This document shows, one piece after another, positions 13,216 to 48,112 of a stretch of 64,000 nucleotides of DNA. This DNA is from a bacterium (GTDB lineage Bacteria; Hinthialibacterota; Hinthialibacteria; H5-UNCL2), in assembly GCA_015075175.1 (NCBI GenBank), contig JABTUV010000001.1:124001-188000 (forward strand). Reading direction: 5' to 3'. Within the stretch, counting starts at the first letter, position 1, and each line of letters begins with the position of its first letter. Both the position numbers and the translations under genes were made by a program. The notes under the pieces were generated by a model. That model was not told where the DNA came from. It ran no database searches and worked only from the letters and a program-made list of their open reading frames with translations.

Positions 13216-13749
13216 ATGCGCCGGGGCGCGTGGTTGTTGGCTCTCGGCCTGGCGGTTGCCGACGTGGGAGCCTGGGGCGACGCGGCGGGGGCGGTGCCGT
13301 CCAGTACCGCCCCCCGCCTGGCCTCGCTTTCCGAACTCACAGACGGATTGGTCAAGTCTCATGCGGGCCGCGTACTGATCGTGAACTTCTGGGCGACCTG
13401 GTGCGCGCCGTGCGTGGCGGAACTGCCGGAACTTGCGAGATTCCACCGGGAATATCACGCGAAAGGCGTGGAGATGGTGGGCATCTCGCTGGACTTCCTG
13501 GACCTGAAAAAGCCGAACGAAGTCCCCGCAACGCTCACGCGCTTTCTGGAGAAGAGACCGCTTGCCTACGGCGTCCTGGTCAAGAACACGACCGATAACG
13601 AGGCGCTGATCAACTACTACTCGCGCGAGTGGAGCGGGGCGATACCGGCGACGTTCATCTACGACGCCAGCGGACGGCAGGTGTTCTCGCGGGTCGGCGA
13701 AGTGGATTTCGCCACGCTGAGGCAGGCGGTCGAGGCGGTAGTGGAGTAG
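13216..13749 (+). CDS. TlpA-like thiol:disulfide oxidoreductase
   Basis: 177 residues. A short hydrophobic N-terminus (GAWLLALGLAVADVGAW) is followed by a thioredoxin domain with the canonical WCAPC in VNFWATWCAPCVAELPELARF and cis-Pro IPATF. Members reduce periplasmic disulfides or feed electrons to cytochrome maturation. The start at 13216 directly follows the upstream stop. The TAG stop is the first part of a GTAGGGTGCGCA repeat. Confidence 0.88.
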   Translation: MRRGAWLLALGLAVADVGAWGDAAGAVPSSTAPRLASLSELTDGLVKSHAGRVLIVNFWATWCAPCVAELPELARFHREYHAKGVEMVGISLDFLDLKKPNEVPATLTRFLEKRPLAYGVLVKNTTDNEALINYYSREWSGAIPATFIYDASGRQVFSRVGEVDFATLRQAVEAVVE

Positions 13750-13830
13750 GGTGCGCATTGCGCACCACCTTGCCCGCATCCGGTCGGCGCCTTGATGGAG
13801 CTAATCGGTGCGCGATGCGCACCCTACCGT
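13747..13830. repeat. GTAGGGTGCGCA inverted repeat pair between convergent genes
   Basis: TAGGGTGCGCATTGCGCACC at 13747-13766 faces GGTGCGCGATGCGCACCCTA at 13807-13826. The pair can form a large hairpin between tlpA-like (plus) and the superoxide dismutase gene (minus), and could act as a bidirectional terminator. The left arm supplies the stop codon of the plus-strand gene. Confidence 0.65.
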
Positions 13831-13833
13831 TGT

Positions 13834-14472
13834 CTACTTCCTGGCCGCCTTGTAGCGATCCGCCACGTCCTCCCAGTTGACCACGTTCCACCAGGCCTCG
13901 ATGTAGGCCGGGCGCTTGTTCTGGTACTTGAGATAGTAGGCGTGCTCCCACACGTCCAGACCCAGGATCGGCGTGCAGAGGCAGTCCACCACGCCCTTCA
14001 TCAGCGGGTTGTCCTGGTTGGCCGTGGAGCACACGCACAGCGAGCCGTCGGTCTTGACGCCCAGCCATGCCCAGCCGGAGCCGAATCGCGTCGTCGCCGC
14101 CTTGGCGAACTGCTCCTTGAAGGCGTCGAACGAGCCGAAGTGCTTGTCGATGGCGTGCGCCAGATCGCCCGAGGGCTTGCCGCCTCCGCCTGACGCGGGA
14201 CTGCTCATGATGGTCCAGAACAGCGAGTGGTTGTAGTGCCCCCCGCCGTTGTTGCGCACCGCGGCGCGAATGGACTCCGGCACGGCGTTCAGGTCGGCGC
14301 AGAGCTGCTCAATGGTTTTCGACTCCAGCGCGGCCTGACCCGCGATGGCGTTGTTCAGATTCGTCACGTACGCGTTGTGGTGCTTGCCGTGATGGATCTC
14401 CATCGTGCGGGCGTCGATGTGCGGCTCGAGGGCGTTGGAGGGGTACGGCAGGGCGGGAAGCGTGAAGGCCAT
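13834..14472 (-). CDS. sodA: Superoxide dismutase (Fe/Mn type)
   Basis: 212 residues of the Fe/Mn-SOD family. N-terminal [18 protein letters not shown] and [14 protein letters not shown] carry the first metal His. [13 protein letters not shown] gives the second His and the gatekeeper Tyr. FGSGWAWLG is followed by [21 protein letters not shown], which provides the DxxEHAYYL ligands. No signal peptide, so cytoplasmic. It converts superoxide to peroxide. Whether iron or manganese is used cannot be decided by eye, so the symbol is provisional. Confidence 0.93.
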
Positions 14473-14646
14473 GAGTCACCTCTCGATGCGGACAGGAATG
14501 ATGCGGGAAGTCGTGTCTGAAAGACGATAGGGGCGATGCGCCGCGCAGTCCGCGCGGCGGTCGACCCGGACCGAGGCCACCCTACCCTTGGGGTCGATCG
14601 CCAGGCGACGGCGGGACCGTCACCCCGGCGGACACGGGAGCGCCAC

Positions 14647-15105
14647 ATGACTTCGTTTCTCGAGGAACTGCGCTGGCGGGGCCAGCTTCATCAGACAGCA
14701 GGCGAGGGGCTGGAGGAGCATCTGCGATCGCCCTCGCAGGGCGGGGTGATGCGCGTCGCCTACGCCGGGTTCGACCCCACCTCCGACTCCCTCACCATCG
14801 GCAACTTCATCCCCGCCAAGGCCCTGATGCACTGGCAGCAGTGCGGACACAAGCCCATCGTGCTGATGGGCGGCGGCACGGGGCTGATCGGCGACCCGTC
14901 CGGACGCGAAAGCGAGCGCACGCTCATGTCGCGCGAGCAGGTGGAGGCGAACGTCGCCTCGCAGCGGCGCATCCTGGAGAAGTTCCTCGACTTCGACCGC
15001 AAGCGCCCCAACGGGGCCATCATCGTCAACAACGCCGACTGGCTGACAACCCTCGGCTTTCTTGACGTGCTGCGCGACGTGGGCAAGCACTTCTCGGTCA
15101 ACTGA
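14647..15105 (+). pseudogene. tyrS: Tyrosyl-tRNA synthetase, N-terminal part only
   Basis: 152 residues starting MTSFLEELRWRGQLHQ, with VAYAGFDPTSDSLTIGNFIP (the class I HIGH-type box, here TIGN), GGGTGLIGDPSGRESER, and the 3' end LRDVGKHFSVN followed directly by TGA. Full-length TyrRS is about 420 residues, with KMSKS and anticodon-binding domains that are absent here. The sequence stops in the middle of the catalytic domain, exactly where the FG-GAP protein gene on the other strand also loses its end. Either the locus is rearranged or the assembly is chimeric at this point. Confidence 0.85.
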
Positions 15106-15106
15106 A

Positions 15107-16644
15107 GGGATGGTGCGGACGGTATCGACGACCGTCACGGTACTGGTTGCGACGGAGACGTAATCCGCGTCCAGCACGGCCAGCTGACTTCGAAGACCAT
15201 CGGCGAGGACCCGTTGAAATAGAGCAGGGGCGAGACGGCGGTAGAGTCGTCGAACGCGGCGCCCGGCAGATCGACGAACCACTGATAAAGGAGGCTGTCG
15301 CCGTCGGGGTCGGAGGAGGCGGAGCCGTCCAATTGCACCCAGCTGGCGGTTCCGGCGGCCTCGACGGTGTAAGGCCCGCCGGCGTCGGCGACGGGCGGTT
15401 GATTGGCGCTCGTAACCAGAGCGTTGTTCCAGACCTGGGCGATGCGCGCCAGGCCGGTGTTGCCTGAAGGAGGATGTCCAGATCGCCGTCGCGGTCGTAG
15501 TCGCCCCAGGCCACGCTGCCCTTGGCCACCGCGGGCAGGACCACGGTGGCGTCGTGAATGAACACGCCGCCGCCGTCGTTGCGATAGATGCGCGCGGTCT
15601 TGCCCACGTCCGACTCGCCGGAGAGGAGGATGTCCGGATCACCGTCGCGGTCGTAGTCGCCCCAGGCCACGCTGGAAAGTGAGGCGCCCGGCAACGCGGC
15701 GCGCGTCTCGCGCGAGAACAACCCGCCGCCGTCATTCCGGTAGATCCAGGAGATCAGGCCCGAACCCATGTTGCCGGTGAGCAGAATGTCAGGATCGCCG
15801 TCCCGATCGTAGTCGGCCCAGGCGACGCTGCTGTTGGCCACGCCCAGCATGACGGCGGCCGTTTCCCACGCGAAGAGGCCGCCGCCGTCGTTGCGGTAGA
15901 TGCGGCTGATGCGACTGGAGCCGAGACTGCCGGTAAGGAGAATATCGGGATCGCCGTCCAGGTCGAAATCGGCCCAGGCCACGCTGCCGGAAATGACGCC
16001 GGGCAGGACCGCGCCCAGCTCTTCGGTGAAGACGCCGCCGCCGTCGTTGCGATAGAGGCGGGCGATCTTGGCCAGGTTGACGAGCGCGCCGGTCAGGAGC
16101 AGGTCGGGGTCGCCGTCGCCGTCATAGTCGGCCCAGGCGGCGCTGCCGTTGGAGACGCCGGGCAGTACCGCCGCCGCGTCCCACGTGAAGACGCCGCCGC
16201 CCTGGTTGCGATAGAGGCGCGTGATCGGCCCCAGCGTGGGCGAAAGTCCCGACAGGAAGACGTCAAGCGTCCATCTAGATCGTAATCGACCCAGGCGGCC
16301 GTCCCCAGCGAGATTCCGGGCAGGACGGCGTTGGCCTCAGGATGAAGGCGCCGGCGTCGTTGCGATAGACGCGGGAGAAGACGCCCACCGTGCCCGCGTT
16401 GCCGGCGACCAGAGCGTCGAGGTCGCCGTCGCCGTCGCAGTCGCCCCAGGCCACACTGCTGTCCGTGACGCCCAAAAGCCCTGCTTCCACGTCGGTAAAG
16501 GTCGGCCCGTCCGCGCGGCAAGTATACGCCGCGGCCAAGCCGATCAGGAGAAGCGCGAGAACCAATGGGTTTGTCGGGGTGAGGCAAGGCGGCTGCGATG
16601 GCGCGGGCCACAGGCCGGTGGACGCGCTGGGATGCTCCTGGCAT
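15107..16644 (-). CDS. Secreted FG-GAP/VCBS repeat protein with PKD domain (3' end missing, frameshifted)
   Basis: The start at 16644 has GAGGAGG 6-8 bases upstream; a signal-like segment (LVLALLLIGLAAAYTCRA) follows in another frame. About eight tandem FG-GAP repeats of roughly 55 residues follow, each with a Ca-binding loop D-x-D-x-DGDxD (for example WADYDRDGDPDILLTG) and IYRNDGGG. Then comes a PKD domain (PPVADAGGPYTVEAAG...LDGSASSDPDGD). Frames change near 16600, 16340, 16250, 15470 and 15180. The PKD domain is cut after VTVVDTV, and the next codons are antisense to TyrRS. It is predicted to be an extracellular adhesin or carbohydrate-binding protein. Confidence 0.75.
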
Positions 16645-16892
16645 GGTCACTACCTCCTCGGCCACCCCAGTTGGCGCGTGTAAATGGCTGCAACAGGTAT
16701 TTTACAGCATGGGCGATTCCTTTTCCAATTTGCCAAGAAATATTCTCATAAATGCAACGAAACGAGGCATGAAACAGCCGATTTGACACTTTGGGAGGTA
16801 GTTGCGCGCGTGTTGCGTCTTTGGAGTGCGGCTGCTCGCTGCCGCGGGGCGGAATAGGACCCATGGGACCTATGGGACCTATTCTCCGGTTA
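16645..16892. other. Intergenic region with two repeat families
   Basis: About 250 bases without a credible gene. It holds a copy of the GGAGTGCGGC...GCTGCCGC palindrome at 16822-16846 and the ATGGGACCT nonamer array at 16860-16880, just beyond the ferredoxin gene. No convincing promoter is seen. Confidence 0.5.
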
Positions 16893-17168
16893 CTACGAAT
16901 AATCGACCGTGATGTCCCCGCGGATCACGGCAGCACATCAGGCGCTGGTCCGGCTCGGCGTCGAAGTCGGAGAGGGTGCTCTTCTCCTGCTCATTGGGCG
17001 GGTCCAGGTTCTCCATGCCCGATACCACGCGCGTCATGCAGGTACTGCACGTGCCATGATGGCATCCGAAGGGCAGCTCGCCGTTGACCGCCTCGACCGC
17101 GTTGAGCACGCTGTCGCCGGCGGCGACTTCGTAGACCTTGTGTTCAGGCAGCACGGTGACCTTGGCAT
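16893..17168 (-). CDS. 2Fe-2S ferredoxin (frameshifted at both ends)
   Basis: A plant-type ferredoxin of about 91 residues. The cluster loop is FGCHHGTCSTCMTRVVSG (C-x4-C-x2-C) with the fourth Cys in RLMCC. The ATG at 17168 has a strong AAGGAGG RBS. One base is missing just after it (MAKVTVLPEHK is restored by a single insertion). Near 16925 another one-base shift gives the native end VIRGDITVDYS. It is a soluble electron carrier with no partner gene adjacent. Confidence 0.8.
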
Positions 17169-17239
17169 GGACGCCTCCTTTTTCGCCTTGTCGCGTTCAA
17201 GATAATCGCGGCGAAAACGCAGGTCAAGTCAATGCGTTG

Positions 17240-17258
17240 GTAGGTGGAACCCACCCTA
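17240..17258. repeat. GTAGGGTGGGTTCCACC repeat
   Basis: GTAGGTGGAACCCACCCTA; the same text recurs at 56232-56271. On the minus strand it begins with the TAG used as the stop of the DUF2339 gene. Confidence 0.55.
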
Positions 17259-20200
17259 CCCGAGCCATTTCATCAGTTTCTCTCGGAACTGCACATACAA
17301 GACGCGACTCGATAAGGCATCCGCCCAGGACCGCCCAGACGATGATCTTGGCGGGCAGGTCCAACTCCCTCGTGTCGAAAAGGGCGATGCGGGCGATCAC
17401 AAGAGAAACAGGGCCAACCCGTAGCGCCGATAGATGCCCGCGCGGAAGGCGAAACCCAGAGCAGGAGAATGACGGCGGTCGCGCTCCAACCGACGGCGGA
17501 GTTCAGGCGCCAGCAGGTCGCTGTGCGCAGTCGTCGACATGCCGACGAGGATCATGGCCAGGATGAGCAGATGGCGCAGGGGAGCGACGACGCGGCGCCA
17601 CTCTTCTGCCAGCGGCGGGAGGCCCGGCAGTTTCCAGCCGCCGGTCGCCGTGCGCTCGTAGGCTGCGGTCAGGAGTCCGGTCGCCAGCATGGGCAGGATC
17701 AGATCGGTGAAGCCGTGGCCCAGCGGCCGGCCCACGCCGTCCCGGCTATAGAAATAAAACGCGGCGTGCGCCAGCGCCAGCAGGGGCAGCGTGGCGGCCG
17801 CCAGGCGCGGGGCCGCCGCCGCGCGTGCACCCCACAGGAGCAGCCCGGCGGCCAGTGCCACGCCCGGATAGAGCGCCATCGGATGCACTCGCTGGTGGAG
17901 CAGGGCATAGACGATGCCGTAGACGGCCAGCGCCGGCAGAATCCACCACCACGCGGGGCGGTCGCGTTGCGCGCGGTCCGTGAGCGCCGTCAGGATCACG
18001 CCCACGATGAAAAGAAAGAGGCTGGTCATCGGCCAGTCGCGGGCCGCCGCAAAGGCGCCCAGGCCGTGATAGTACTGGCCGAGGGCGACCAGCAGCGCGA
18101 CTCCTGAAGCGTAGGCCATGGGCCGCAGGAGAACGGTTCCGCCGCCCAAGAGCAGCGCGCAGAGCGTGCTTGCCAGGAGCGCGTGGGGCCGCGCGAGGGT
18201 GGTCGTCAGGGCCAGTGGGACGATCCAGCCGCCCAGCGCCGCCAGCGTACGGGCCAACGCGCCATGCAGGGGCTCTATGGGATCGCGCGCCTCGCGCGTC
18301 ATGCGTTGGTACTCCCACGCCAGCGCCGGAAGGAAGAGGCCCGCGACCAAGATGGGCGCGCATCGCAGGAGCGAGGCTGTCGGCGCGCGTGACGTGGACC
18401 AGGGCGGTCGCGGAGAGGGTGAGCGCCGCGAGGGCGACGAGCGTCCAGTAGACGGGCTGGCTGCGTTCCAGGGTGGCCCAGGCGTGCCGCAGCGTGCGCG
18501 GCGTCAAGAGTCCCGCGGACAGGAGCGTGGCCCCCGCCAGCCACGCCCAACTCCACGAGGGGACGGCTTCACTGGGTCCGGGCCAGGAAGCGGGCAGCGA
18601 GGCCACGAACGCAACGTCCCCCAGACGGTCAAGGCCGCCGCCGCCCAGAAGGCGGGGCGCGTCCGCAGCGACAGCCCGCCAGGAGAATCACGAGCGACAG
18701 AATGGCCAGGGCGATCATCTCCGCGCGCCCGTCCCAGCGCGCGTGGGACAGCCAGGCGCACAAGACGACCGCCAGGCCCGCGTGCGTCCACGTCAGGACC
18801 TGGTTGGCGCGACGCATGAACTCCATCCATTCGCGCCCCCAGTGCGCGGGCGGCGGTTGGCGCTCCTCCAGCATGGACTTGGTGAACAGCACCGCCGCTC
18901 CGAAGAGTCCGCCCCAGTAGTCGTTGGGCGCAAAGGGCCGCACGGCGTGATAGTGCAGGAAGTCCAGTACCGCCACGGCCAAGACGCCCTCGGCCGCGTA
19001 ATAGAACACGGCCATGCGCAGGCGATAACCGGCGATGAGTAAAAGGAGCGCGAAGGCGTAGAGGATGGCGTTGCGGGCCAGGCCGTCCCAGGCGCTGAAG
19101 GTCCCCAGCAGCGCCAAGACGACCGCCAGCGCGAAGTAGAAGGCGTCCGCGCCCGAGTCCCGCCGCCGCTCCAGCATTCCCACGCCCACTTGCACCGCCG
19201 CCAGCGGGAAGTAGAACCCGAAGAGGACCTCGACCCGGTCCGTCATCAGGTACAGGAACGAGGTGAATACGAAGTAGAAGAGCGCGTTGACGACTCCCAC
19301 CGTGACGCCGAGGGCGGTTTCCAGGAAACTTTTTTGCGCTTCGCCCCGGCGCAGCAGAAAGAGCAGTTGCGCGCAGATGAAGACGCCGTAAATGGTTGTC
19401 AGACAGGTGAGATTGAGCCAGAAGTGAAAGTCGTTGTGCTCGCGTCCCGGATGGGTGAAAAGCCAGGGGGCCAGGGTGAGATAGGAGCTGGCCAGGGCGA
19501 AGAGCGAGAGATGCGTCCACCCGCGGCGGAGTTGCAGGTAGAGGGCGGCGGCGGCCAGGATCAGCATGGCCAGGAGCGGCTCGGCGCCGACTTCGCGGGT
19601 AGCGACGTAGGCGGCGGCCTGGCCGATGAAGATCGACATGCCCGCGATCACGGGCGCCTGCCAGCGCTCGGAGATGGCCAGCATCGCCGCCACGAAGGCC
19701 GCCGACAGGAGCGCGGAGGCGGGGACGGGCAGGCAGTTCATGGCGGGCAGGAAATGCGCGGCGAAGGAGACGAAGAAGCCGATGGCCAACCCGCCGGCGA
19801 TGAGGCTGCGCCCGAACAGCTCCACGTGCCGGCGATAGTACCAGCCGGCGGCCAGCAACACGGCGGAGAGCGCGTAGCCAAGGAGCACGCGCTGGACGGG
19901 ACCGGAGCCTTGGCTCAGGTACACGCCCCACATGCCGAGTGCAATCGCCAGCGCCAGTACGCCCAGTCGCACCAGCCAGTAGATGCCCAAGAGCATCTCG
20001 ATGTTCTCGCCTTCGGGCGGGCGGCCGATGATCTTGAAGAGCCATTCACGGGCGACGTGCCAGGGGGGCGGGCCGGGCGGCGCCGCCGGCGCGCCGCTTT
20101 GAAAAAAGGCTTGCAGGCGCCGCTGTGCAGAGGACGGCGGCTCGGGCTGGGGGGTTGAAACCGCGCCCGCCCGGAAGTCGCTGGTCGCTTGGGCCTGCGA

Positions 20201-20410
20201 TGGTGTCGGCGGCGGCGGCGCGACCGCCGGGGGAACCGGCAGACCTTCCGGGACGGCCGGTCTTTCTTGCGCGGCGGACAGCCGCTCGCCGAGTGCGAAC
20301 GCCGCTTCGCGGCAGGCGGAGAGGTCCTTTTCCACCTCTTTGAGGCGCGCGCGCAGGTGGGTTAACTCCAACTCAAGTTGTTCCAAGGGGTTGGGACGAT
20401 CTTCCGGCAT
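17256..20410 (-). CDS. DUF2339 multi-pass membrane protein (frameshifted)
   Basis: Reconstructed length about 1050 residues. Residues 1-50 are a coiled coil (LELELTHLRARLKEVEKDL), followed by a Pro-rich linker and, from about residue 135, more than twenty hydrophobic segments (for example LVRLGVLALAIALGMWGVYL). The repeated short helices and the C-terminal VLYVQFREKLMKWLG match DUF2339. Apparent one-base shifts occur near 18660, 18600, 18400, 17470 and 17310. The function of DUF2339 is unknown; integral inner-membrane location is clear. The stop is inside a GTAGGGTG repeat. Confidence 0.75.
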
Positions 20411-20496
20411 CGCGCATTCCTCCCGGGGCGGCCCGTCCGGACCGCGTTGTGAAGTGAATGATGCAAAGTGCGGGCCGAAGTGGGCGGCCCGTTCTC

Positions 20497-21177: not shown

Positions 21178-21255
21178 CGTGAGGGTCCCTTCGAATGGAA
21201 CGAGAGGGGATCATACTCCGGGGGGGGCGGCGAGTAAACAGGCGAGACGCGCCCG

Positions 21256-21340
21256 GGGAATGGGACGGATGGGACCTATGAGACCTGCACTTGACAGGGT
21301 GAGCCCTATAGGTTGCATAGGTCCCATAGGTCCCATACGC
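21256..21340. repeat. ATGGGACCT nonamer arrays
   Basis: GGGACGGATGGGACCTATG at one side and CATAGGTCCCATAGGTCCCA at the other, in inverted orientation. Other copies are at 16860-16880, 31870-31893, 44047-44081 and 56840-56872. Confidence 0.6.
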
Positions 21341-21396
21341 GGCAGCAAGGAGCCGCGTTCCAAAGGCGCGGCAGCAGGCAGCCGCAGTCCAGAGGC
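21339..21396. repeat. GGACTGCGGCTGC family palindromic repeats
   Basis: Two copies, CGCGGCAGCAAGGAGCCGCG and GCGGCAGCAGGCAGCCGCAG followed by TCCAGA. On the minus strand the second begins 5 bases after the TGA of the next gene. Confidence 0.6.
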
Positions 21397-21398
21397 GC

Positions 21399-22163: not shown

Positions 22164-22169
22164 GGGCGT

Positions 22170-27432: not shown

Positions 27433-27545
27433 CATAGCGGCGACATCCTGCCGCCGGTCTCGGGGACGTCTCGTCCCCGATTCCACCAACCGCGCCGTCT
27501 CGGCTGGACGCCGACACGACCGGCGACAGGATGTCGCCGTTACGC
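27433..27545. repeat. GGCGACATCCTGTCGCC palindromic element
   Basis: GGCGACATCCTGCCGCCGG at the left and CCGGCGACAGGATGTCGCC at the right, with an internal GGGGACGTCTCGTCCCC hairpin. It fills most of the gap between the dGTPase and the BNR gene. Confidence 0.55.
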
Positions 27546-31088: not shown

Positions 31089-31865
31089 ATGGGGAGAAAA
31101 AATGGAGGTATGATGCGACTCATTCTCGCGGGGCTGGCGTGTCTGATTCTGTGCGGGCAGGCTGGGGCGGCCGAACCGGCCCCCGCGTCGGTGCTTCCCG
31201 CCAGCGTGGACTTGCGGCCCGAGTTCGAAAAGTGGGGGTTGTCGCCGCGGGGGCAGGGCGAGCGCGGGACCTGCTCGGTGTTCGTGACCGTGGAGGCGCT
31301 CGAGTTCGTGCTGGCCCGGCAACGGGGACGCGGCCAGCGGCTCTCAGTCGAATACCTCAACTGGGCCGCCAACCAGGGGTGGGGCGTGAGTCGGGCCGAC
31401 GGCAGCTTCTTTCGCGACTGCCTGCGCGGTTACAAATACTACGGCATCTGCCCGGAAGAGGACCTGCCCTACCGGGACACCTTCGACCCGGACCTGGTCC
31501 CCTCCGAGGCGGCCATCGCCAAGGCGACGGAGATTTGGGCGCACGGATTTCAAGTGCGCTGGATCAAGTTCTGGAACCGGCAGAAGGGGCTTTCCGACGG
31601 CGATCTTGTCCAGGTCAAGCAGGTCCTGGCCAAGGGTTATCCGGTCGCGGCGGGTTCCGACCACAGCCGGCTGCTGGTCGGCTACCGGGACGATCCGCGG
31701 CGGCCGGGGGGCGGGGTTTTTATCGCGCTGGATTCGGCGGCGGTGCGCTACACGCGGCTGGACTACGCGTGGGCCAAGGCCAACTTGAACGATCTTTACT
31801 GGATCGAGGGTCCGCCGGCTGGGCCGGAGAAGAGCGCGGAAGGCCGGCGGCCGCGCCGGGGATAA
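31089..31865 (+). CDS. Papain-like (C1 family) secreted peptidase
   Basis: 258 residues with signal peptide (LILAGLACLILCGQAGAA). Papain-fold landmarks: SVDLRPEFEKWGLSPRGQGERGTCSVFVTVEALE, where the catalytic Cys follows a Gln as in QGxxGxC, and a His-containing AAGSDHSRLLVGYRDDPRRPGGGVFIALDSAA. The Cys context (GTCSVF) differs from the usual GSCWAF and the His block is altered (DHSRLLVGY). It may therefore be a low-specificity or inactive member. Starts at 31089 and 31113 are both possible. It ends upstream of a perfect terminator hairpin. Confidence 0.68.
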   Translation: MGRKNGGMMRLILAGLACLILCGQAGAAEPAPASVLPASVDLRPEFEKWGLSPRGQGERGTCSVFVTVEALEFVLARQRGRGQRLSVEYLNWAANQGWGVSRADGSFFRDCLRGYKYYGICPEEDLPYRDTFDPDLVPSEAAIAKATEIWAHGFQVRWIKFWNRQKGLSDGDLVQVKQVLAKGYPVAAGSDHSRLLVGYRDDPRRPGGGVFIALDSAAVRYTRLDYAWAKANLNDLYWIEGPPAGPEKSAEGRRPRRG

Positions 31866-31869
31866 ACGG

Positions 31870-31893
31870 AATGGGACCGATGGGACCGATGGG
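31870..31893. repeat. ATGGGACC(G) array
   Basis: AATGGGACCGATGGGACCGATGGGACC, three tandem nonamers immediately after the peptidase gene. Confidence 0.6.
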
Positions 31894-31937
31894 ACCAGCC
31901 CGGGTGGGATAGAAGACCGGCAGGGGCGGCTAAAAGC

Positions 31938-33667: not shown

Positions 33668-33763
33668 CTTAATCTCAATCGTAATGGTAACTGTTCATTT
33701 TACTCGTAATCGTCGTCAGGCTCGCAATCTCGATGTCCGCAACGGTGCGCGGTGCGCACCCTA
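33668..33763. repeat. GTAGGGTGCGCACC repeat at the glycosyltransferase stop
   Basis: On the minus strand TAGGGTGCGCACCGCGCACC begins with the TAG stop of the glycosyltransferase gene (33763-33761). The remaining AT-richer 70 bases hold no clear signal. Confidence 0.55.
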
Positions 33764-34995
33764 CGTTTCGAGCATCTCCGCAATGTGGCGCGCCAGCCGG
33801 CGATAGGTCCGATCGCGATTGAAGTCGCGGCGCGCGAGGGCGAAGGCGTTCTGGGCCAGGCGCTCGCGCAGAGGGGCGTCCTCGACGAGGCGGCGCAGGG
33901 CGGCGGCGAGCGCGGGCGCGTCGCCCGGCGGCACCAGGAGGCCGGTGTCGCCGTCGCGGACGACCTCGGGGATGCCGTAGAGGGGAGTCGTGACGACGGC
34001 GGCGCCGTGGGCCATGGCCTCCAGGACGACCACGGGCAGACCCTCGCGCTCGCCGGGCACGGGAAGCAGCGGCAGGGCAAGCACGTGCGCGGCGGCCATT
34101 TCCTCCAATACCCGCGGTCGGGGCAACATGCCTAACCAAGCGATGCGGTCGGCGATGTCCTCCCTTTTTGCCTGCGCGTACAAGTCGGAACCGGCCGGGC
34201 CGTCGCCCACGATCCGGCACTGGCAGGCGACGCCCTCGCGGGCCAGGTGCGCCAGCGCAGACAGGAGGGTAGGGAAGCCCTTGCCGCGCCGCAGTCGTCC
34301 GACCGCCAGGATGCGGAAGTCCGCGCCCTTGGTCGGGAGGCGCTCCGGCGCATCGACTCCGCAGCGGACCAGGTGGAAACGTTGGGCGAGCTCTTCGCCC
34401 AGGCGCTCGCGCAGATACAGCCGGCCGGCCTCGCTGACGGTCGTGCAGAAGACGGCGTCGCGGACAATGCGCGACAGCAGGCGCGGATGGGCCTCCAGGT
34501 CGAAACCGTGGCCCTCAAGGCCGAAGGGCACGTGCAGGAGCGAGGCGGCCACCCAGGCGGCGGTGGCGGGGGAATTGGCGAAGTGGGCGAAGAAGGCTGC
34601 CACCCCGGCGCGCTGCCCGCCAGGCGATCTGACAGGCGCGCAACAGCGCGTACAGGTCGCGGGCCAGCCGGGCGTGCGGCGCCCGTCGCCAGGATGGTCG
34701 CCAAGCGGGAGAAGAAGGCGCGCGGGTTGCGCCCCATCGCCCAAGCCACCCGCAGCCAGAAGCGCGGCATGAGCGGATGGATGGGATAACTCAAATGCTC
34801 GAACAGGCAGTGCGTATGCGGATGGATGATCTCGGGGCGGGGCGGGCGCAGGCTCCAAATGTAGACCTCCTGTCCGGCTTCTCGACAAGCCAGAAGCGCG
34901 TCGGCCACGAAGGTCTCGGAGGCGACTGGAAAAAGCGAGACGAGGTGGCCGACGCGCACGGCGGGCGCCGCGCCGGAAGGCGGTTTACTTTCCAC
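33761..34995 (-). CDS. GT4-family glycosyltransferase (frameshifted)
   Basis: About 410 residues. N-terminal VGHLVSLFPVASETFVADALLACREAGQEV matches colanic-acid-type GT4 enzymes. C-terminal half has FGLEGHGFDLEAHP, ILAVGRLRRGKGFPTLLSAL, GDGPAGSDLYAQA, then the E-x7-E motif in EREGLPVVVLEAMAHGAAVVTTPLYGIPEVV. At least one frame change lies between 34580 and 34720. The likely GTG start at 34995 overlaps the 32-residue gene upstream. It probably builds an exopolysaccharide or surface glycan; specificity is unknown. Confidence 0.8.
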
Positions 34996-37079: not shown

Positions 37080-37083
37080 AGCG

Positions 37084-37671
37084 GTGAGGCGATTCGTGCC
37101 GGTCCCCGTGGTCATTTCGGGCCCGTCGGGAGTGGGCAAGAACACCGTGCTCGGTCGGATTCTGGCGACCTGCCCGGAGACGGCCTATTGCCTTTCGACC
37201 ACCTGTCGTCCGCCGCGGGGTGGGGAGCGGGACGGCGTGGATTATCACTTTCTCACCCGCCCGGCGTTCGAGGCGGCGGTGGCGGCGGGGGAGTTCGTCG
37301 AGTGGGCGGAGGTGCATGGGCAGCTCTACGGCACGCGGCGGGCGGACCTGGAGGCGCATCTCTCCGCGGGCCGGGACGTGCTCCTGCAGAAGGACGTGCA
37401 GGGGGGGATGGCTCTTTCCGCCGCCTATCCCGAGGCGTTGCTCATCTATCTTCTGCCTCCCAGCTGGGAGGAGTTGGAGCGGCGGTTGACCGGACGGGCG
37501 ACCGACGAGCCGAACGAGATCGCCCGCCGGCTGGAGACCGCCCGCCGCGAGAACGAGATGGCGCGGCATAACACGCACTGGGAGGTCAACGACGCGCTGG
37601 AAGAGACGATCACGGCGGTGCAACACATCATCCTGGGCGACCGCTACCGGAAAATTAGGGTCAGCGCCTAA
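37084..37671 (+). CDS. gmk: Guanylate kinase
   Basis: 195 residues from a GTG start 4 bases after YicC. P-loop ISGPSGVGKNTVL, TTCRPPRGGERDGVDYHFLT, EFVEWAEVHGQLYGTRRADLEAHL and the NTHWEVNDALEETI C-terminal helix are canonical. It phosphorylates GMP. The last residues RKIRVSA and the TAA are encoded by an inverted repeat element, so the original C-terminus may have been displaced or extended. Confidence 0.92.
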   Translation: MRRFVPVPVVISGPSGVGKNTVLGRILATCPETAYCLSTTCRPPRGGERDGVDYHFLTRPAFEAAVAAGEFVEWAEVHGQLYGTRRADLEAHLSAGRDVLLQKDVQGGMALSAAYPEALLIYLLPPSWEELERRLTGRATDEPNEIARRLETARRENEMARHNTHWEVNDALEETITAVQHIILGDRYRKIRVSA

Positions 37672-37736
37672 TTTTCCCCGGAATGCAGGAAGGACAAGCC
37701 AATGCATCGGGAAAATTAGGCGCTGACCCTAATTTT
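37651..37736. repeat. Perfect 25-bp inverted repeat between gmk and pilT
   Basis: AAAATTAGGGTCAGCGCCTA... at 37651-37675 is repeated in the opposite orientation at 37712-37736. Each arm is itself nearly palindromic (AAAATTAGG against CCTAATTTT). It encodes the last residues and stop of gmk and ends 15 bases before the PilT start. Confidence 0.75.
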
Positions 37737-37751
37737 CGGGGGAGGTGCGTC

Positions 37752-38841
37752 ATGGAGCTGGTGGAGATTCTCAAGAAGACGGCGGAAAAGGGGGCGTCGG
37801 ACCTGCACTTGAAGGTGGGCAGCCCGCCCAACGTGCGCGTGGACGGCGAATTGGAGCCGTTGGACCTGCCCGTGCTCATGCCGGACATGACCGAGGCGCT
37901 GGTGCTGGAGATGCTGCCGGCGCGCTTTGAGGGCAAGTTCCCGCACAGCGGCAGCGTGGACTTCGCCTACGGGGTGCCCGGGGTGGCGCGCTTTCGCGTC
38001 AACGCCGTCCGCCAGCGCGGCAGCATCTCCGCCGTCCTGCGCCTGGTGCGCTCCGACATCCTGCCCTTCGACCAGTTGGGCCTGCCGCCGATTCTCCAGA
38101 AGCTAGCCGAAAAAGAACGCGGCATGGTGCTCATCACGGGCGTGACCGGCTCCGGCAAGTCCACCACCCTGGCCAGCATGATCGATTACATCAACCATAG
38201 CCGCTCGGCGCACATCGTCACCATCGAGACCCATCGGTATCTTTATCAGGACGACAAGTGCCTCATCAACCAGCGCAGGCTGGGCATCGACTTCTGAGGA
38301 CTTCGCCGACGCGCTCAAGCGCGTCCTGCGCCAGGACCCGGATATCATTCTGATCGGGGAGATGCGCGACCGCGAGACCATCCAGGCCGCCATCAAGGCG
38401 GCGGAAACCGGGCACCTCGTCTTTTCCACCCTGCACACGGCGGACTCGGTGCAAACGGTGGACCGCATTTTGAAGTACTTCGACGCGACGGAGCAGGAGC
38501 TGATCCGCATGCAGTTGTCGCTCAACCTGCAAGGGGTGGTGAGCCAGCGGTTGTTGCGTAAGGCGTCCGGCAAGGGCCGGCTGCCCGCGGTGGAAGTGCT
38601 GGTCAACACGCCGATCGTGCAGAAACTGATTTTCGAGGGGCGGACGAAAGACCTTAAGGACGCGGTGAAGAATCGTGAGGACGGGATGCAGACGTTCGAC
38701 CAGTGCCTCCTGGAGTACGTGCAGAAGAAGCAGGTTACGGCGGAGGAGGCGCTCCTCAATGTGGACAATCGGGCGGCGTTCGTGCGCATGATGAAGGGCG
38801 GCTTCTCCGACAGCGACCGCGGGGGGAGCATTTTGCGGTAA
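37752..38841 (+). CDS. pilT: PilT-family twitching ATPase (frameshifted)
   Basis: About 363 residues. N-terminal region SDLHLKVGSPPNVRVDGEL, Walker A VTGSGKSTTL, Walker B region DPDIILIGEMRDRETIQAA, and the His box GHLVFSTLHTADS. The C-terminal half extends QLSLNLQGVVSQRLLRKA to the end. Frame changes near 38230 and 38290 disrupt the DPIEYL-type Asp box region; the real protein should read through. It retracts type IV pili. Stop TAA lies inside the GTAACGCCGGC repeat. Confidence 0.85.
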
Positions 38842-38925
38842 CGCCGGCGGGCGGATCGTAGTTGCATCCGCCGCGCGGATGCTGCGCCTCTGCGTACCGC
38901 CGGCATCCCTGCGGGCATGTGATAT
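38839..38925. repeat. GTAACGCCGGCG-family repeat after pilT
   Basis: TAACGCCGGCGGGCGG, then GCCGGCATCCCTGCGGGCAT. Same family as at 43186-43326 and 47989-48112. Confidence 0.5.
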
Positions 38926-39030
38926 GAAGTGCGGCGGCTTGCCGCCGCCGGATAGCTTCCGCGTCCCGTCGCGGCAGCAAGCAGCCGTAGTCCAGAAAAA
39001 AGGCGGCAGCAAGCTGCCGCAGTCCAGATA
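38925..39030. repeat. Three GGACTGCGGCTGC-type repeats before ftsH
   Basis: GAAGTGCGGCGGCTTGCCGC, then CGGCAGCAAGCAGCCGTAGTCC and CGGCAGCAAGCTGCCGCAGTCC. The last starts 4 bases after the TGA of ftsH on the minus strand. Confidence 0.6.
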
Positions 39031-39032
39031 CG

Positions 39033-40925
<1,893 letters not shown>

Positions 40926-41099
40926 CGACACTCCTTCGAACACGCTTGGGCGGGACGAGGTCGAAGATTCGACCGTACCCGGACCAAAGCAGTTGGGGTC
41001 AATTCTAGTGGAGTCAAGCCTCGAGCCGCGGGAAGACGGGTCTGGACAACCACGGTCACGGCCCAACTTCTCCGGCCTTGCGGCTCGATGTCGGGGCCA

Positions 41100-41375
41100 T
41101 CAAGTCTTCAGACCGATCCCGACCAGAAAGGTTTCAGCCGATTTGTCGCGCGAGGCCTTGGGCTTGATCGGCTTGGCGACGCGAAACCGGGCTTTGAAGG
41201 CCTGCATGAGCTGGCTGTAGCCGCTGCCGTGGAAGACCTTGGTCACGAGCGCGCCGTCCCGGGTGAGGTGGCGACTCGAAAAGTCGATCGCCAGCTCCAC
41301 CAGATCGGCCATCCGCGCCGCATCGGCCACCGCCACGCCACTGAGGTTGGGGGCCATTTCGACCGAAGGAGAAAT
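41100..41375 (-). pseudogene. rlmE: RlmE (FtsJ) 23S rRNA methyltransferase, C-terminal half only
   Basis: The frame reads [52 protein letters not shown]... and ends in [19 protein letters not shown]. It contains the SDMAPN-type motif, the KVF loop and the C-terminal Lys-rich end of RlmE. The N-terminal half with the SAM-binding GAAPG motif is missing. The break is exactly at a TTTCGACC palindromic element, and the next upstream gene is unrelated. In many bacteria rlmE precedes ftsH in the same operon, and that order is kept here. Confidence 0.8.
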
Positions 41376-41442
41376 CTTCCCGGCCGTTGCCGTCACGCGA
41401 GTGCGACACAGAAGATTTATACCTTAGGTCGAAATGTCAGTG
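41355..41442. repeat. CATTTCGACC mini-element with terminal inverted repeats
   Basis: Left CATTTCGACCGAAGGAGAAA... and right CATTTCGACCTAAGGTATAA in the complement, with about 25-base arms. Same family as at 30861-30963. It abuts the truncated end of the rlmE remnant. Confidence 0.65.
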
Positions 41443-41471
41443 GGGGGGCGTAAAGGCAATGCGGCTATCCG

Positions 41472-43130: not shown

Positions 43131-43185
43131 GGGGGAAGGATAGCGCAAGCGGGCGGCGGCGGGGAGCGAAATCGACCGGTACGTC

Positions 43186-43326
43186 GCCAGGGGTAGCGCC
43201 GGCATCCTGCCGGCTTGCGTGGGCGGCGTCCCGCCCCCACGGTTCGGGGGTTTTCGTGTTATGGCGTTGAAGCGTGTGGGCAAGATGCCCACACGCAAGC
43301 CGGCAAGATGCCGGCGCCACGGCGTT
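43186..43326. repeat. CCGGCATC-family palindromes
   Basis: GTAGCGCCGGCATCCTGCCGGC, then GCGTGTGGGCAAGATGCCCA and CAAGCCGGCAAGATGCCGGCG. Arms recur in opposite orientation around the gap between two genes. Confidence 0.6.
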
Positions 43327-43331
43327 GTGGG

Positions 43332-44024
43332 TCAGCGCAACTCGCGGAGGTAGATGTTCTTGAAGTAGAGCTTGGAGCCGTGGTCCTGCAGTTCGATCTG
43401 GCCCGTGGGATAGATCGGCTTGTCGCGTTCCCAGTAGTTCTCCATCACCACGTTGTCGACGACCAGTTGATCGTTCAGATACACGGTGACGCGCTCGCCC
43501 ACCATCTTGATGTAGAAGTGGTTCCATTCGCCGATCGGCCTGTCGGCGACGACGAGGGGCGTCCGGGGGCCTTGCTGGTTGTTGTAGAGGCCGCCGGAAC
43601 CTTCGGGATGTTGTGCCGGGTCCCAGATTTGCACCTGTGGACTGCCGCGCAGGTAGATGCCGGAGTCACCGCCCGGCCCGATCTTCCAATCGACCAGGAG
43701 CTCGAAATCGGCGTAATCTTTCCGGGTGCAAAGGGCGCGACCCTTGCCGTCGAAGACCAGGACGCCGTTGACCACGCTCCAGTGGGCGGTCATCTCCTCG
43801 TCGGCCTTTGCTTGCGCCGCGGCCAGCTCTTGCGGGGTCATGCGGGCGCGTTTGGGGGGACTTTCGACCAGGCCCTTCCAGCCGGAGAGGTCCGCGCCAT
43901 TGAAGAGGGCGACGAAGCCCCTGGGAGCGACGTTGTCGCGTGGACCGCGCACGGTATGGGCCTGCCGCGTGGCGCAACCCGCCAACAGCAGGGACGCGGT
44001 CAAAATCACGGCGATGCCGCGCAT
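43332..44024 (-). CDS. DUF1080 (3-keto-disaccharide hydrolase-like) lipoprotein
   Basis: 230 residues. Lipobox LLLAGCATRQ near residue 15 predicts a lipid-anchored protein. The body includes FVALFNGADLSGWKGLVE, HWSVVNGVLVFDGKG, YADFELLVDWKIGPGGDSGIYLRGSPQVQIWDP, EWNHFYIKMVGERVTVYLNDQLVV, a standard DUF1080 concanavalin-like domain. It may hydrolyse modified disaccharides, as DUF1080 proteins do. Downstream are nonamer and CCGGC repeats. Confidence 0.85.
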   Translation of the reverse strand: MRGIAVILTASLLLAGCATRQAHTVRGPRDNVAPRGFVALFNGADLSGWKGLVESPPKRARMTPQELAAAQAKADEEMTAHWSVVNGVLVFDGKGRALCTRKDYADFELLVDWKIGPGGDSGIYLRGSPQVQIWDPAQHPEGSGGLYNNQQGPRTPLVVADRPIGEWNHFYIKMVGERVTVYLNDQLVVDNVVMENYWERDKPIYPTGQIELQDHGSKLYFKNIYLRELR

Positions 44025-44046
44025 GGGGGCCTCCTGATTCTTGCAG

Positions 44047-44081
44047 GTCCCATAGGTCCCATTGGTCCCATAGGTCCCATT
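44047..44081. repeat. AGGTCCCAT nonamer array
   Basis: Four tandem copies, AGGTCCCATAGGTCCCATTGG and so on, between the DUF1080 gene and the toroid gene. Confidence 0.6.
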
Positions 44082-44088
44082 CTCTCTC

Positions 44089-45339
44089 TCACCGCTTGCC
44101 GGCGCGGATGCCGGACACCTTCTCCAGCGGAAAGTAGTGCAGATAGGGCGCGCGGTTGAAGGTCCAGGGAGTCGGATCGGCCTTGGGATGCGGAATCAAC
44201 TGGTTGATGAGGGCGACCGAGAGCAGCCGGAACCAGCTGGGGAAGAGGGCGCTCTCGTCCGCGTCCGAGCTCATCAGGGCGTGGCCGTACACGTAAGGCT
44301 TGCCGCGCATGTAGACGAAGCCGCCGTCGGGATTCTGGTGGGCCAGAATGGTCTCCAGCACCCGGGTCAGCGCGCGCTCGATGTCGGCGCGGCGATGGTC
44401 AAGGAGCAGATAGGCGTTGACCAGAATGAAGGCGGCGTCGATGTCCTCGCAGGCGCCGGAACGGCCGTCCAGGGCGAACCCGCCCGATTCAGGGTTCTGC
44501 AGGGAGAGGGTGGCGTCGACGGCCGCCTCCAGGTTGGGGATGGGGCGGTCGTCGTACACGTAGAGGATGTATTCGTGATAGGCGCCGCACATGGCGTGCA
44601 GCTTGCCGGCGCGGCTCTTGCAGTCGACGCCCAGAAGCCGGTGGCGCGGTCCTGGTGGGCGTCCAGCCAATCGAACAAGCGCACCACCAGGTCGCGGGCG
44701 CGGTCTTCGTGGTGGAAATCGCGCGCGTAGAGGAGAAAGGCGCCGAGATTGAGGACCTCGTTGCCGACCGCCCAGGCGACGTTCCAATCGCGCGCCGCCA
44801 ACCAATCTTCCAGGACGATGCGGCCGGAGTAGAAGTCCTCCAGGAGGCGGATGGGGCGGGCGGCGACGCCGCCCAGGCTGTCCAGGGCGCAGAGGATGTG
44901 GTTGGTCATGTGCCACCAGCCCCAACCGGCGATGCCGCCGTCCCAGCCGGCGTCGGGGGCGAACGGGACGCCGGACAAGTCGTCGGGCAGCCCGAAGGCC
45001 GGATCGCGGAAAAGACCGTCTTCACATTGGAAGGAATTGAGATAATCGACCCAGGCGCGCTTCTCGGCCTCGGAGGCGAGGGCCAGGTCGCCGGCGAGGT
45101 CGCGGGCCATGGCCGCGTAGGCCGAGCAGTACGCCAGCGGCTGGCGCGCTCGTGAAGTGTAGGCGTAGGCGAAGGGAGAAACCTGGGGCCGCGCGCAGGA
45201 TTGCGTGAACGCCAGCACGCCCGAGGCGGCCGTGGGCGTAGGACAGACGGACTTCGACATTCTCCAATACTCCCGGCATCATGTTGTCCATACCTCTACG
45301 CGGAAGCAACAAGTACACGTCATCGGCGATGGACTCCAT
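44089..45339 (-). CDS. Alpha-toroid (prenyltransferase-repeat-like) protein of unknown function (frameshifted)
   Basis: About 415 residues. Repeated segments such as LSLQNPESGGFALDGRSG and LAHQNPDGGFVYMRGK are QxPxGGF repeats of the six-hairpin alpha/alpha toroid fold. The C-terminal WTFNRAPYLHYFPLEKVS and the middle WDGGIAGWGWWHMTNHILCALDSLGG are aromatic-rich. Frames change near 45200 and 44640. Without active-site residues it cannot be assigned to cyclases or glycoside hydrolases. The start at 45339 (MESIADDVYLLLPRR) is the best guess. Confidence 0.55.
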
Positions 45340-45421
45340 GAACCAGGCAAAACGAGAGCCACAACGCAAAAATCATCGTAGCGGTTTCCCCCGCCACTGG
45401 CAAGTCCCATCTGTGGGCCGG

Positions 45422-45449
45422 TTGACACTGGGTGCGGCGGTGTTATCAT
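45422..45449 (+). promoter_or_regulatory. Sigma-70-like promoter of the MptE-like operon
   Basis: TTGACA at 45422-45427, 16-base spacer, TATCAT at 45444-45449; the start codon is 31 bases downstream. Confidence 0.6.
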
Positions 45450-45479
45450 ACCGTGAAAACCGGCCGCTGGGAGCCCTGC

Positions 45480-46097
45480 ATGGAAATCCTCTTCGACAAC
45501 CAGGCGGTGGACCTGGGACCCTTCGCCACTTTCCCGGAGTACGCGGAAGCCCTGGAACGCCGGGCGCAGGAGCGACGCCGGGTGATTACCGGCGTGGTGG
45601 TGGACGGACGGAATTACCATGGACTGGACAGCCGCGAGCTGGCCGGCCGGGATCCGGCGCAGGTCGCGCGATTGGAGATCAGTACCGAGAATCCCCGCAA
45701 GCTGGGCATCACGATCCTTTATGACACGGCGCGCTACATGCCGCGGTTGGCCAACGGCTTTTCGCGCGTGGCCGAGCAGATTCAGCGCCGCGAGGAACAG
45801 TCGGCGATGGAGCTGTTGCAGGAATGTCTGTCGACCTGGATGGAGCTGACGCAGGGCATGAAAGGCTCCATGATTACGCTGGGGCTGGACCTGGAGGAGG
45901 TCGAGCTGGGCGAAACCAATCTGGGGGTGATCTACGAGGAGATTCTGGACCTTCTGAGCGACGTGACCGACGCCATGGAGGAGGGGGACTACCTGGACTT
46001 GTCGGACCTTCTGGAATACGAGGTGGCGCCGCGGCTCCTGTCCGTGGAGGAGGGTTTGTATCGCATGATCAACCTGGCGGAGCGGAAGCTGCATTAG
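45480..46097 (+). CDS. 205-residue protein upstream of the MptE/Maf-like gene
   Basis: 205 residues, start with GGGAG RBS. Contains MEILFDNQAVDLGPFATFPEYAEALERRAQERRRVITGVVV and a long helical stretch (REEQSAMELLQECLSTWMELTQGMKGSM, then EEVELGETNLGVIYEEILDLLSDVTDAMEEG). No recognised domain; the helical, acidic nature is like FliS-type or bundle proteins, which is guesswork. It is 3 bases ahead of the MptE-like gene, so the two are very likely co-transcribed from the promoter at 45422. Confidence 0.7.
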   Translation: MEILFDNQAVDLGPFATFPEYAEALERRAQERRRVITGVVVDGRNYHGLDSRELAGRDPAQVARLEISTENPRKLGITILYDTARYMPRLANGFSRVAEQIQRREEQSAMELLQECLSTWMELTQGMKGSMITLGLDLEEVELGETNLGVIYEEILDLLSDVTDAMEEGDYLDLSDLLEYEVAPRLLSVEEGLYRMINLAERKLH

Positions 46098-46100
46098 GCC

Positions 46101-47991
46101 GTGGACGACCTTGGACGCAGTTGGCTGCATCGCAACCTGGCGGCGCTGGCGCCGCGCCAGCCGCGCCTGGCGGAGATGCTCTCGGCGCTGCCCCCCGATC
46201 CCCGCATCCACCTGGAGCCGACGCGCAACGGTCAGTGGACGGGTGTCTACACGCCGGCGGACGGCAGGCCGCAGCGGCTGGCCAGTCGGGGCGATCCGCG
46301 CGCGCAAGCGGCCCGCTCGCTGGAGGGCCTCTCGCTGGACTATCATCAGAATCAACTGCATCTGGGACTGGGGCTCGGCTACGCGGCGGAGCTGTTGCGC
46401 GAGCGCCTCTGCGGCGGCCATCTGCGGTTGATCCTCTGCGAACGCCGGCCGGAGCTGTTGCGCGCCGTCCTGTCGGTGCGAGACATGCGCCCGCTCCTGT
46501 CCGATCCGCGCGTGCACATCTTCACCGGCCCGGAGACCCGCGCGCTTTTCCCGCGCTTCTGGGACGAAGTCGTGGGATTCGCCCTTCACGGCTTGTCGCT
46601 CTCGGACAATCCCGCCGCCGTCTCGCTGGCGCCCGAGTGGTATTCCGAGGTGGCCGAGGTGGTACTGGACGCGGTCCGCGCGGCCAAGGTCAGCCTGCAT
46701 ACCAAGTTCATCGACGGCTGCCTCTTTCTGGAGAGCTGCCTGGCCAACGCGCCGCTCTTTGCGACCAGCCCGCCGGCGCGCGACTATGCGGCTCCTGTCC
46801 GGCAAGCCCGTGATCGTCGTGGCCGCAGGCCCCAGCCTGGACAAAAACGTGCATCTGCTCGCAGACGCCCGCGACCGCGCCTTCATCCTGTGCGTGGACA
46901 CGTCCTACCGCAACCTCATCCGGCGCGGCATTGTGCCCCACGCGGTCGTCTCCATCGACGCGCGCGACAACAGCTACAAGCATTTCGCCGGCATCCCGGA
47001 GCCGACCGGCGCGCGGCTGATCTTTGATCCCGAGAGCAATCCACTCACCGTCTCGTCGTTTGCCGGGCCGCGGCTGGCGGTGGGACTCTCCAAATCGCAC
47101 CTGACGCGCTGGCTGGACGAAATCTGCGGCGGCAAGGGGCAGGTCCAGAAGGGCAGCAACGTGATGCTGGCGGCGTTTCACATCGCCCAGGCCGGCGGCG
47201 CGGCGCCCATCATCCTGATCGGCTGCGATCTCGCCTATCCGCGCGAGGGCGGCACCACGCACGCGGGAGAGACGGCCTTCAACATGCGCTTCCGCCGGGT
47301 CGAGCGCGACGGAAAGGTCTTTTTTCAGAAGCCGCATTTCGACGATCCGGGTAAGATCGACGAGTTCGAGGTGCGCATGGTGGAAGGCGTGGACGGGCAG
47401 CCCGTGCCGACCATCCCGCAGCTCTACACGTATCTCTCCATGTTGGAGTCGGAGGTGGCGCAGAGGCGGAGCCGCGTGATCGACGCGACGGAGGGCGGGG
47501 CCAGAATCGCGGGCACGGAGATCCTGCCGTTGGCAGAGGCGTTGGAGCGTTATTGCCCGGCCGGGGGCGTGCCGCTGCCGGAGGCCTTGCCGGAGTTCTC
47601 ATGCCTTGACGGCCGAGCGCGCGTCAAGGCGGAGCTGTCGGCCCTGGCGGAGGCGTTGGAGCGCTCGGGGCGGAGCGCCGAGGAAGGGCTGCGCCTCTGC
47701 GCGCGCCTGGAGCGGGCGCTGGCGGCCGGCGAGCGTGAGGACGCGGCGCAACGAGCCGGTCGGCTCCCGGCGCATTTTCACACGCTGCTTTCTCCCAAAC
47801 CGGTCGAGACGATCATCGAATCCGGCGCGGCGGCGGAGATGTTCCAGTTCCTTCAGAACTCCGGCCGGCGCGCCCGACCGGACGTGACGCCCGAGGAGCT
47901 GGCCGCCGATTTCCGCGCCGCCTTCTCCGCCGTGCGCGCGGTTACGGCGCACTTCCATGCGCTGGTGGGCAGGGTGATGCAGGAGCTGTAA
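46101..47991 (+). CDS. MptE/Maf-like protein (DUF115) (frameshifted)
   Basis: About 628 residues from a GTG at 46101. The core begins KPVIVVAAGPSLDKNVHLL, HAVVSIDARDNSYKHF, MLAAFHIAQAGGAAPIILIGCDLAYP, a DUF115 signature shared by archaeal MptE pyrophosphokinase and bacterial Maf flagellin glycosyltransferases. The N-terminal 230 residues (GLGYAAELLRERL, LILCERRPELLRAVL) are the Maf-type domain. A frame change lies near 46790. Probably a nonulosonic acid glycosyltransferase, but no flagellin or nonulosonate gene is in the window. Stop TAA lies in a GTAACGCCGGC repeat. Confidence 0.75.
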
Positions 47992-48112
47992 CGCCGGCGC
48001 CTCGCCGGCTCACGTGTAGGCATCTTGCCGACACGTTTCGTTACGATATGCGCCGTGCCGAAGCGTGTGGGCAGGATGCCCCCACGCAAGCCGGCAAGAT
48101 GCCGGCGCTACG
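47989..48112. repeat. CCGGCATC/GTAACGCCGG family repeat
   Basis: TAACGCCGGCGCCTCGCCGGCT at the left and AAGCCGGCAAGATGCCGGCG plus GTGTGGGCAGGATGCCCCC at the right. Confidence 0.6.

What the first reader, a model, noticed from the sequence alone, without database searches (positions are those of the whole stretch)
13738..48010. Short palindromic repeats supply the stop codons of several genes
The repeat text GTAGGGTG(CGCA or GGTT) begins with TAG at the exact end of three genes: the TlpA-like gene (13749), the GT4 gene (33761) and the reconstructed DUF2339 gene (17256). A second family, GTAACGCCGGC, does the same for pilT (38841) and the MptE-like gene (47991). The MITE at 10866-10983 gives TAG to the MoxR gene (10980), and an AAAATTAGG...GCCTAA arm gives the stop to gmk (37671). 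Seven genes and four repeat families is more than I would expect by accident. The repeats may be inserted at or created near gene ends, or selected as combined stop and terminator modules.
Basis: partly seen in the sequence, partly recalled or inferred. Interest (0 to 1): 0.7.

Follow-up and report, generated by a model that had tools for sequence, protein, structure and literature searches.

The report
Repeat DNA heads serve as stop codons
Short mobile palindromes (REP elements) that start with the letters GTAG sit so exactly at the ends of genes that their TAG has become the genes' stop codon, a little-studied effect already reported in other bacteria and here measured as about a quarter of all such repeats.

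Summary
The GTAGGGTG and GTA(G/A)CGCCGGC repeats are GTAG-type REPs, and the genome has further families (GTAGTTGCGCAGCG, GTAACGGCGAC). In 2.0 Mb of the genome, 53 of 194 strict GTAG heads supply the TAG of a called gene. Offset zero is occupied 51 times, while no other offset within 60 nt has more than two; an independent 0.8 Mb repeats the spike. When a gene's frame reaches a head, the TAG is in frame 64 times of 75 (a third expected, p=2e-20). REP-stop genes keep complete domains, look coding to the last codon and end near where their relatives end. This fits insertion near the natural stop, with only in-frame copies surviving. Uniform insertion underpredicts exact hits about tenfold, so an insertion or retention bias remains open. 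The gmk repeat belongs to an IS200-like transposase that ends in its own repeat; three host genes gain the same '-EN' plus TAG ending. The MoxR case differs: the MITE ends in CTAG at both ends, so the stop may predate it. No REP has a terminator's T-run. That GTAG REPs 'often provide' TAG stops was published in 2013: a new, strong instance of a known effect.

The parts
13746..13766 (+). REP family A (GTAGGGTGCGCATTGCGCACC); its TAG (13747-13749) is the stop of the TlpA/AhpC-like gene 13216-13749
13807..13827 (-). inverted partner REP family A; the convergent gene 13834-14472 ends 10 nt before its head
17240..17259 (-). REP family B (GTAGGGTGGGTTCCACCTAC); its TAG (17256-17258) closes the last piece of a frameshifted gene next to the DUF2339 fragment
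33744..33764 (-). REP family A; its TAG (33761-33763) is the stop of the glycosyltransferase gene 33761-34603 (or longer)
37647..37678 (+). family E hairpin GGAAAATTAGGGTCAGCGCCTAATTTTCC; TAA at 37669-37671 is the gmk stop and the repeat codes the last residues KIRVSA
37709..37740 (-). inverted partner of the family E hairpin
38838..38848 (+). REP family D head GTAACGCCGGC (hairpin degenerate); TAA 38839-38841 is the stop of the pilT-like (T2SSE) gene 38362-38841
47988..48009 (+). REP family D (GTAACGCCGGCGCCTCGCCGGC); TAA 47989-47991 is the stop of the MptE-like gene 46786-47991
48090..48111 (-). inverted partner REP family D with intact GTAG head
43193..43214 (+). REP family D copy not used as a stop
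10787..10807 (+). REP family A copy not used as a stop
56233..56252 (+). REP family B copy not used as a stop
27522..27543 (-). REP family F (GTAACGGCGACATCCTGTCGCC), not used as a stop
10866..10983 (.). 118-bp MITE with inverted ends CTAGTGCCGTTTC / GAAACGGCGCTAG; the CTAG at 10980-10983 holds the TAG stop of the MoxR/AAA gene 10980-12446

Best explanation
The repeats are non-autonomous mobile palindromes: GTAG-type REPs (families A-D and F) and, at gmk, the terminal repeat of a Y1/HUH transposase. They land near the 3' ends of genes. The invariant GTAG head of a REP contains TAG. A copy that lands head-first in the last codons, or in place of the old stop, is harmless only if that TAG is in the gene's frame, because it then ends the protein almost where it ended before. 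Copies in the other frames or the other orientation give long aberrant tails and are lost. The surviving TAG is then kept as the gene's stop and can drift to TAA. Shown here: the exact coincidence, the frame bias, the lack of tail-first cases, intact protein ends, and the lack of terminator T-runs. Inferred: the insertion step, loss of the other frames, and the mobilising enzyme of families A-D.
For: Offset spike: 34-36 exact heads in C1 and 23 in other contigs, every other offset 3 or fewer. Head-first: 51 exact, 21 within 60 nt after the stop, 2 run-through; tail-first: 0 exact, 20 within 60 nt, 0 run-through. Frame: 64 stop against 11 run-through, p=2e-20. Last ten codons of REP-stop genes score 0.302, like internal coding DNA (0.314) and unlike extension into noncoding DNA (-0.348). 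Pfam domains run to completion in almost all REP-stop genes whose last domain can be judged, with short tails in both REP-stop and control sets. The PilB-type gene ends 1-2 residues before most homologues. The base before the head is C in 71% of non-stop REPs against 31% at other noncoding GTAGs (p=4e-18), so GTAG appears to come with the element; stop REPs share this partly (48%). Five convergent gene pairs have both stops made by REP heads facing outward from the gap between them. Family E: three host genes and the transposase all end in -EN plus TAG from the repeat. [quoted passage not shown] PMC5896051 finds MITE insertions in functional Coxiella genes only at 3' ends without notable length change.
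Against: Uniform insertion plus loss of bad frames predicts about 5 exact cases for a 30-nt tolerant tail, against 51 seen (my arithmetic from the densities); about 300 nt of dispensable tail per gene would be needed, which the intact domains argue against. So an extra insertion preference or retention advantage is required. No empty site was found: the nearest genomes held share only the class. No transposase was found next to families A-D. Stop-REP genes end slightly more 'coding' than normal genes, but not significantly more than genes with other GTAG stops (p=0.14).
Confidence: 0.72

Rival explanations
1. Site targeting: the elements insert at GTAG (or TAG) sequences that already exist, so genes that already end in GTAG are hit and the stop is old, not supplied.
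For: If REPs fall on existing GTAG sites, 58% of those in the 0-60 nt zone should be exact stops; 71% are (p=0.03), close but not equal. Occupancy of GTAG sites at stops (25.2%) and in 3' flanks (17.6%) does not differ significantly (p=0.11). The MITE with CTAG at both ends is a plausible single case.
Against: The base before the head is strongly biased to C in non-stop REPs, unlike other GTAG sites. Five convergent gene pairs have both stops made by REP heads, which two independent old stops could hardly fit. In family E the stop lies inside the element.
Confidence: 0.15
2. Selected modules: cells keep REPs exactly at stops because the stop plus hairpin unit improves termination, mRNA stability or translational control.
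For: REPs within 15 nt of stops are reported to stall ribosomes in E. coli (cited in PMC12306157). Stop-REPs are enriched between convergent genes, 33 of 55 against 404 of 1555.
Against: No T-run follows any of 55 hairpins; a functional hairpin would tolerate 1-15 nt spacing, which is nearly empty; stop and non-stop copies are equally diverged (0.950 against 0.928, p=0.38), so no sign of preferential long retention.
Confidence: 0.1
3. Gene-caller artefact: ORFs near GC-rich repeats are spurious and end at the repeat's TAG by default.
For: The caller was home-made, and a few short calls are doubtful.
Against: 39 of the 46 REP-stop genes scanned have Pfam domains, among them FlgK, PilB, Fe-ADH, GH123 and OppC; coding scores are high to the last codons; in annotated E. 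coli K-12 the same happens for rcsC.
Confidence: 0.03

Closest known systems
GTAG-type REP sequences (Di Nocera et al. 2013, PMC3733652; Nunvar et al. 2010, PMC2817692)
   Same: GTAG head next to a short palindrome, hundreds of copies, mostly extragenic, inverted doublets, near gene 3' ends, TAG used as stop
   Different: not matched to one of the published families; no flanking RAYT gene found for families A-D; stop use is measured here (about 27% of strict heads, against 1 of 34 in an E. coli sample)
RAYT/TIRYT transposase with terminal inverted repeats (PMC3733652)
   Same: family E hairpins flank the Y1_Tnp gene on contig 46 in inverted pairs, and the gene's 3' end overlaps the repeat
   Different: motif is AGGGTCAG rather than a full GGGGWSAS; host genes carry the same '-EN' plus TAG ending
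Coxiella QMITE insertions at gene 3' ends (PMC5896051)
   Same: mobile repeats overlap the ends of functional genes with little change of protein length
   Different: unrelated longer elements
E. coli BIME/REP at rcsC (K-12)
   Same: the TAG of a REP head is the gene's stop, and it persists while repeat number and type vary between strains
   Different: rare in E. coli; imperfect palindromes of another REP group

Membership tests
GTAG REP | tetranucleotide GTAG (or variant) directly 5' of a short palindrome | tested here: met
   families A, B, C, D, F
GTAG REP | high copy number | tested here: met
   214 GTAGGGTGCGCA and 192 GTAGTTGCGCAGC in 4.98 Mb, 1 and 0 in the reversed control
GTAG REP | mostly extragenic | tested here: met
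   18 of 194 strict heads lie inside called genes
GTAG REP | inverted doublets | tested here: met
   e.g. 13746/13807, 47988/48090 and convergent both-stop pairs
GTAG REP | cognate RAYT gene flanked by the REPs | tested here: inconclusive
   only two Y1_Tnp genes in an 84% complete assembly, neither near families A-D
RAYT/TIRYT element (family E) | Y1 HUH transposase flanked by the repeats in inverted pairs | tested here: met
   PF01797 E=8e-13; hairpins at L061 1133-1207 and 1893-1966
RAYT/TIRYT element (family E) | GGGGWSAS motif in the repeat | tested here: inconclusive
   AGGGTCAG, 7 of 8 positions
MITE | short element with inverted ends and target duplication | tested here: inconclusive
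   118-120 bp, inverted ends; CTAG at both ends may be duplication or part of the ends
Intrinsic terminator | hairpin followed by T-run | tested here: not met
   0 of 55 stop-REPs

The most novel reading that the evidence does not exclude
The mobilising enzyme has a real insertion preference for translation stops, or the last codons of genes, so that GTAG REPs systematically take over stop codons; the conserved TAG in the head would then be an adaptation that lets the element land at gene ends without harm.
Probability: 0.15. Interest if true: 0.65.

Novelty: new member of a known kind. Interest (0 to 1): 0.38.

Why it matters
It turns a one-sentence published remark into numbers: offset, frame, orientation, protein ends and an E. 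coli contrast. It also leaves a testable puzzle: why exact stop hits are about ten times too many for random landing. If the TAG in GTAG helps the element survive, it bears on why this tetranucleotide is so conserved among REPs.

Tried and rejected
Deep C-terminal truncation rejected by Pfam ends. Extension into noncoding DNA rejected by codon scores. Terminator role rejected. Old-age retention of stop copies not supported. Search for close relatives gave none: class-level only. Search for a REP-rich model genus for empty sites failed. Within-genome paralogues were too few, nine pairs, though most ends are near each other. E. coli rcsC shows repeat-number changes but no empty site in the strains read. 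The 157 non-REP GTAG stops are mostly not decayed REPs by similarity or hairpin.

Full report
What was checked. The window is G000:C1:124001-188000 of a 4.98-Mb, 49-contig, 84% complete assembly whose nearest held relatives share only the class. I read the seven cited sites. Four are GTAG-type palindromes ending a gene exactly (13749, 33761, 38841, 47991); at 38841 only the head is intact. One is a different palindrome at gmk (37671). One is a REP at the end of a frameshifted gene next to a DUF2339 fragment (17256). One is a MITE at the MoxR-like gene (10980).

Is it more than chance? I took 1.2 Mb of contig 1 and 0.8 Mb of four other contigs, called genes with a codon-usage model and located REP heads. 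In contig 1, 36 heads of families A-D have their TAG or TAA exactly at a stop; every other offset from -30 to +30 has at most one. The independent 0.8 Mb gives 23 exact, at most 3 elsewhere. With strict GTAG heads the tally is 53 at stops, 24 in the next 60 nt, 99 in other noncoding DNA and 18 inside genes. Including diverged copies, 69 of 210 GTAG stops are followed by a REP-like hairpin, against none of 243 GTGA stops. If REPs were spread evenly over the stop and the next 60 nt, the excess would have p=5e-74.

Anatomy. Head-first elements: 51 exact, 21 within 60 nt after the stop, 2 run-through. Tail-first: 0 exact, 20 within 60 nt, no run-through. The flank density is thus equal in both orientations; only the exact class is special. 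When a gene's frame reaches a head, the TAG is in frame 64 times, against 11 run-throughs. REP-stop genes lie mostly between convergent genes (33 of 55, background 26%), and five convergent pairs get both stops from REP heads at the two ends of the gap. No hairpin is followed by a T-run.

Do the proteins change? The last ten codons of REP-stop genes look fully coding (0.302), like internal sequence (0.314), and exclude extension into noncoding DNA (-0.348). In Pfam scans of 46 REP-stop and 40 length-matched control genes (a last batch of six controls was not scanned), almost all judgeable last domains reach the end of their profile, and the tails are short in both sets. The PilB-type gene ends 1-2 residues before most homologues; the apparent 90-128-residue differences there look like tblastn matches running on into a neighbouring gene. 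So the stops lie near the natural ends.

Family E. The gmk hairpin (AATTAGGGTCAGCGCCTAATT) flanks the clearest RAYT-like Y1 transposase of the genome, on contig 46, in inverted pairs. That transposase ends ...RPRKEN plus TAG, with EN and TAG from its own repeat. Three host genes end ...GEN...GEN and ...REN with the same TAG, two of them convergent around one pair, and gmk takes its last residues KIRVSA and TAA from another frame. The Guanylate_kin domain of gmk is complete to 179 of 182.

The MITE. Copies are 118-120 bp and most have CTAG at both ends. If CTAG is the duplicated target, the MoxR stop existed before; if it belongs to the element, it was supplied. This is not resolved.

Mechanism. 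The best reading is insertion near gene ends with survival of in-frame copies. Against a pure target-reuse model stand the C-biased base before the head (71% in non-stop REPs against 31% at other GTAG sites), the both-stop pairs, and family E. Against a pure random-landing model stands the size of the excess: from the flank density (21 head-first elements in 65,785 nt) a 30-nt tolerant tail would give about 5 exact cases, not 51. An insertion or retention bias is therefore needed and is not identified; stop and non-stop copies are equally diverged, which gives no support to long retention. In family D, GTAA heads are used as stops more often than GTAG heads (7 of 13 against 3 of 31, p=0.003; not seen in family F or over all families), which would fit later drift of a working stop from TAG to TAA.

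What is known. Di Nocera et al. 2013 (PMC3733652) state that GTAG REP termini often provide the TAG stop of flanking ORFs, and place GTAG repeats in the Planctomycetes-Verrucomicrobia group as well. Coxiella MITEs behave alike (PMC5896051). In an E. coli K-12 sample 1 of 34 heads is a stop: rcsC, whose TAG stays a REP head in the four other strains read, while the repeat behind it varies in number and type. The difference from this genome is significant (p=2e-4), with the caution that E. coli ends were taken from long ORFs. The effect is therefore known; the strength and the several families in one genome are what this case adds.

Noticed in passing
L185 about 16990-17030 (E. coli K-12 rcsC 3' end): The rcsC stop TAG is the head of a REP; strains differ in having one or two BIMEs and in REP type there, while the TAG head stays.
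   Followed up: partly
L061 1133-1966: Y1 transposase flanked by paired TTAGGGTCAGCGCCTAA hairpins whose own stop lies in its 3' repeat.
   Followed up: partly
G000 contig 1 (L001-L060) and others: Abundant unrelated repeat families: TGTCATTTCGACCGAAGGGAGAAATC (over 100 counts of its core), AAGATTAAGATTAAGAGC arrays, and a CTCGAGGACTCGG core seen at dozens of places, also inside the window MITE.
   Followed up: no
G000, 2.0 Mb sample: The base before TAA and TAG stops is G in about 60% and 50% of non-REP cases, against 27% before TGA.
   Followed up: no
window 16842-16882, 21257-21345, 31859-31897, 44031-44089, 56834-56867: Short 9-base tandem units like CCCATAGGT / ATGGGACCT recur at several places.
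   Followed up: no
window 15454-16458: 156-base tandem repeats (six related copies); the called genes are broken around them, suggesting a frameshifted or mis-called repeat protein.
   Followed up: no
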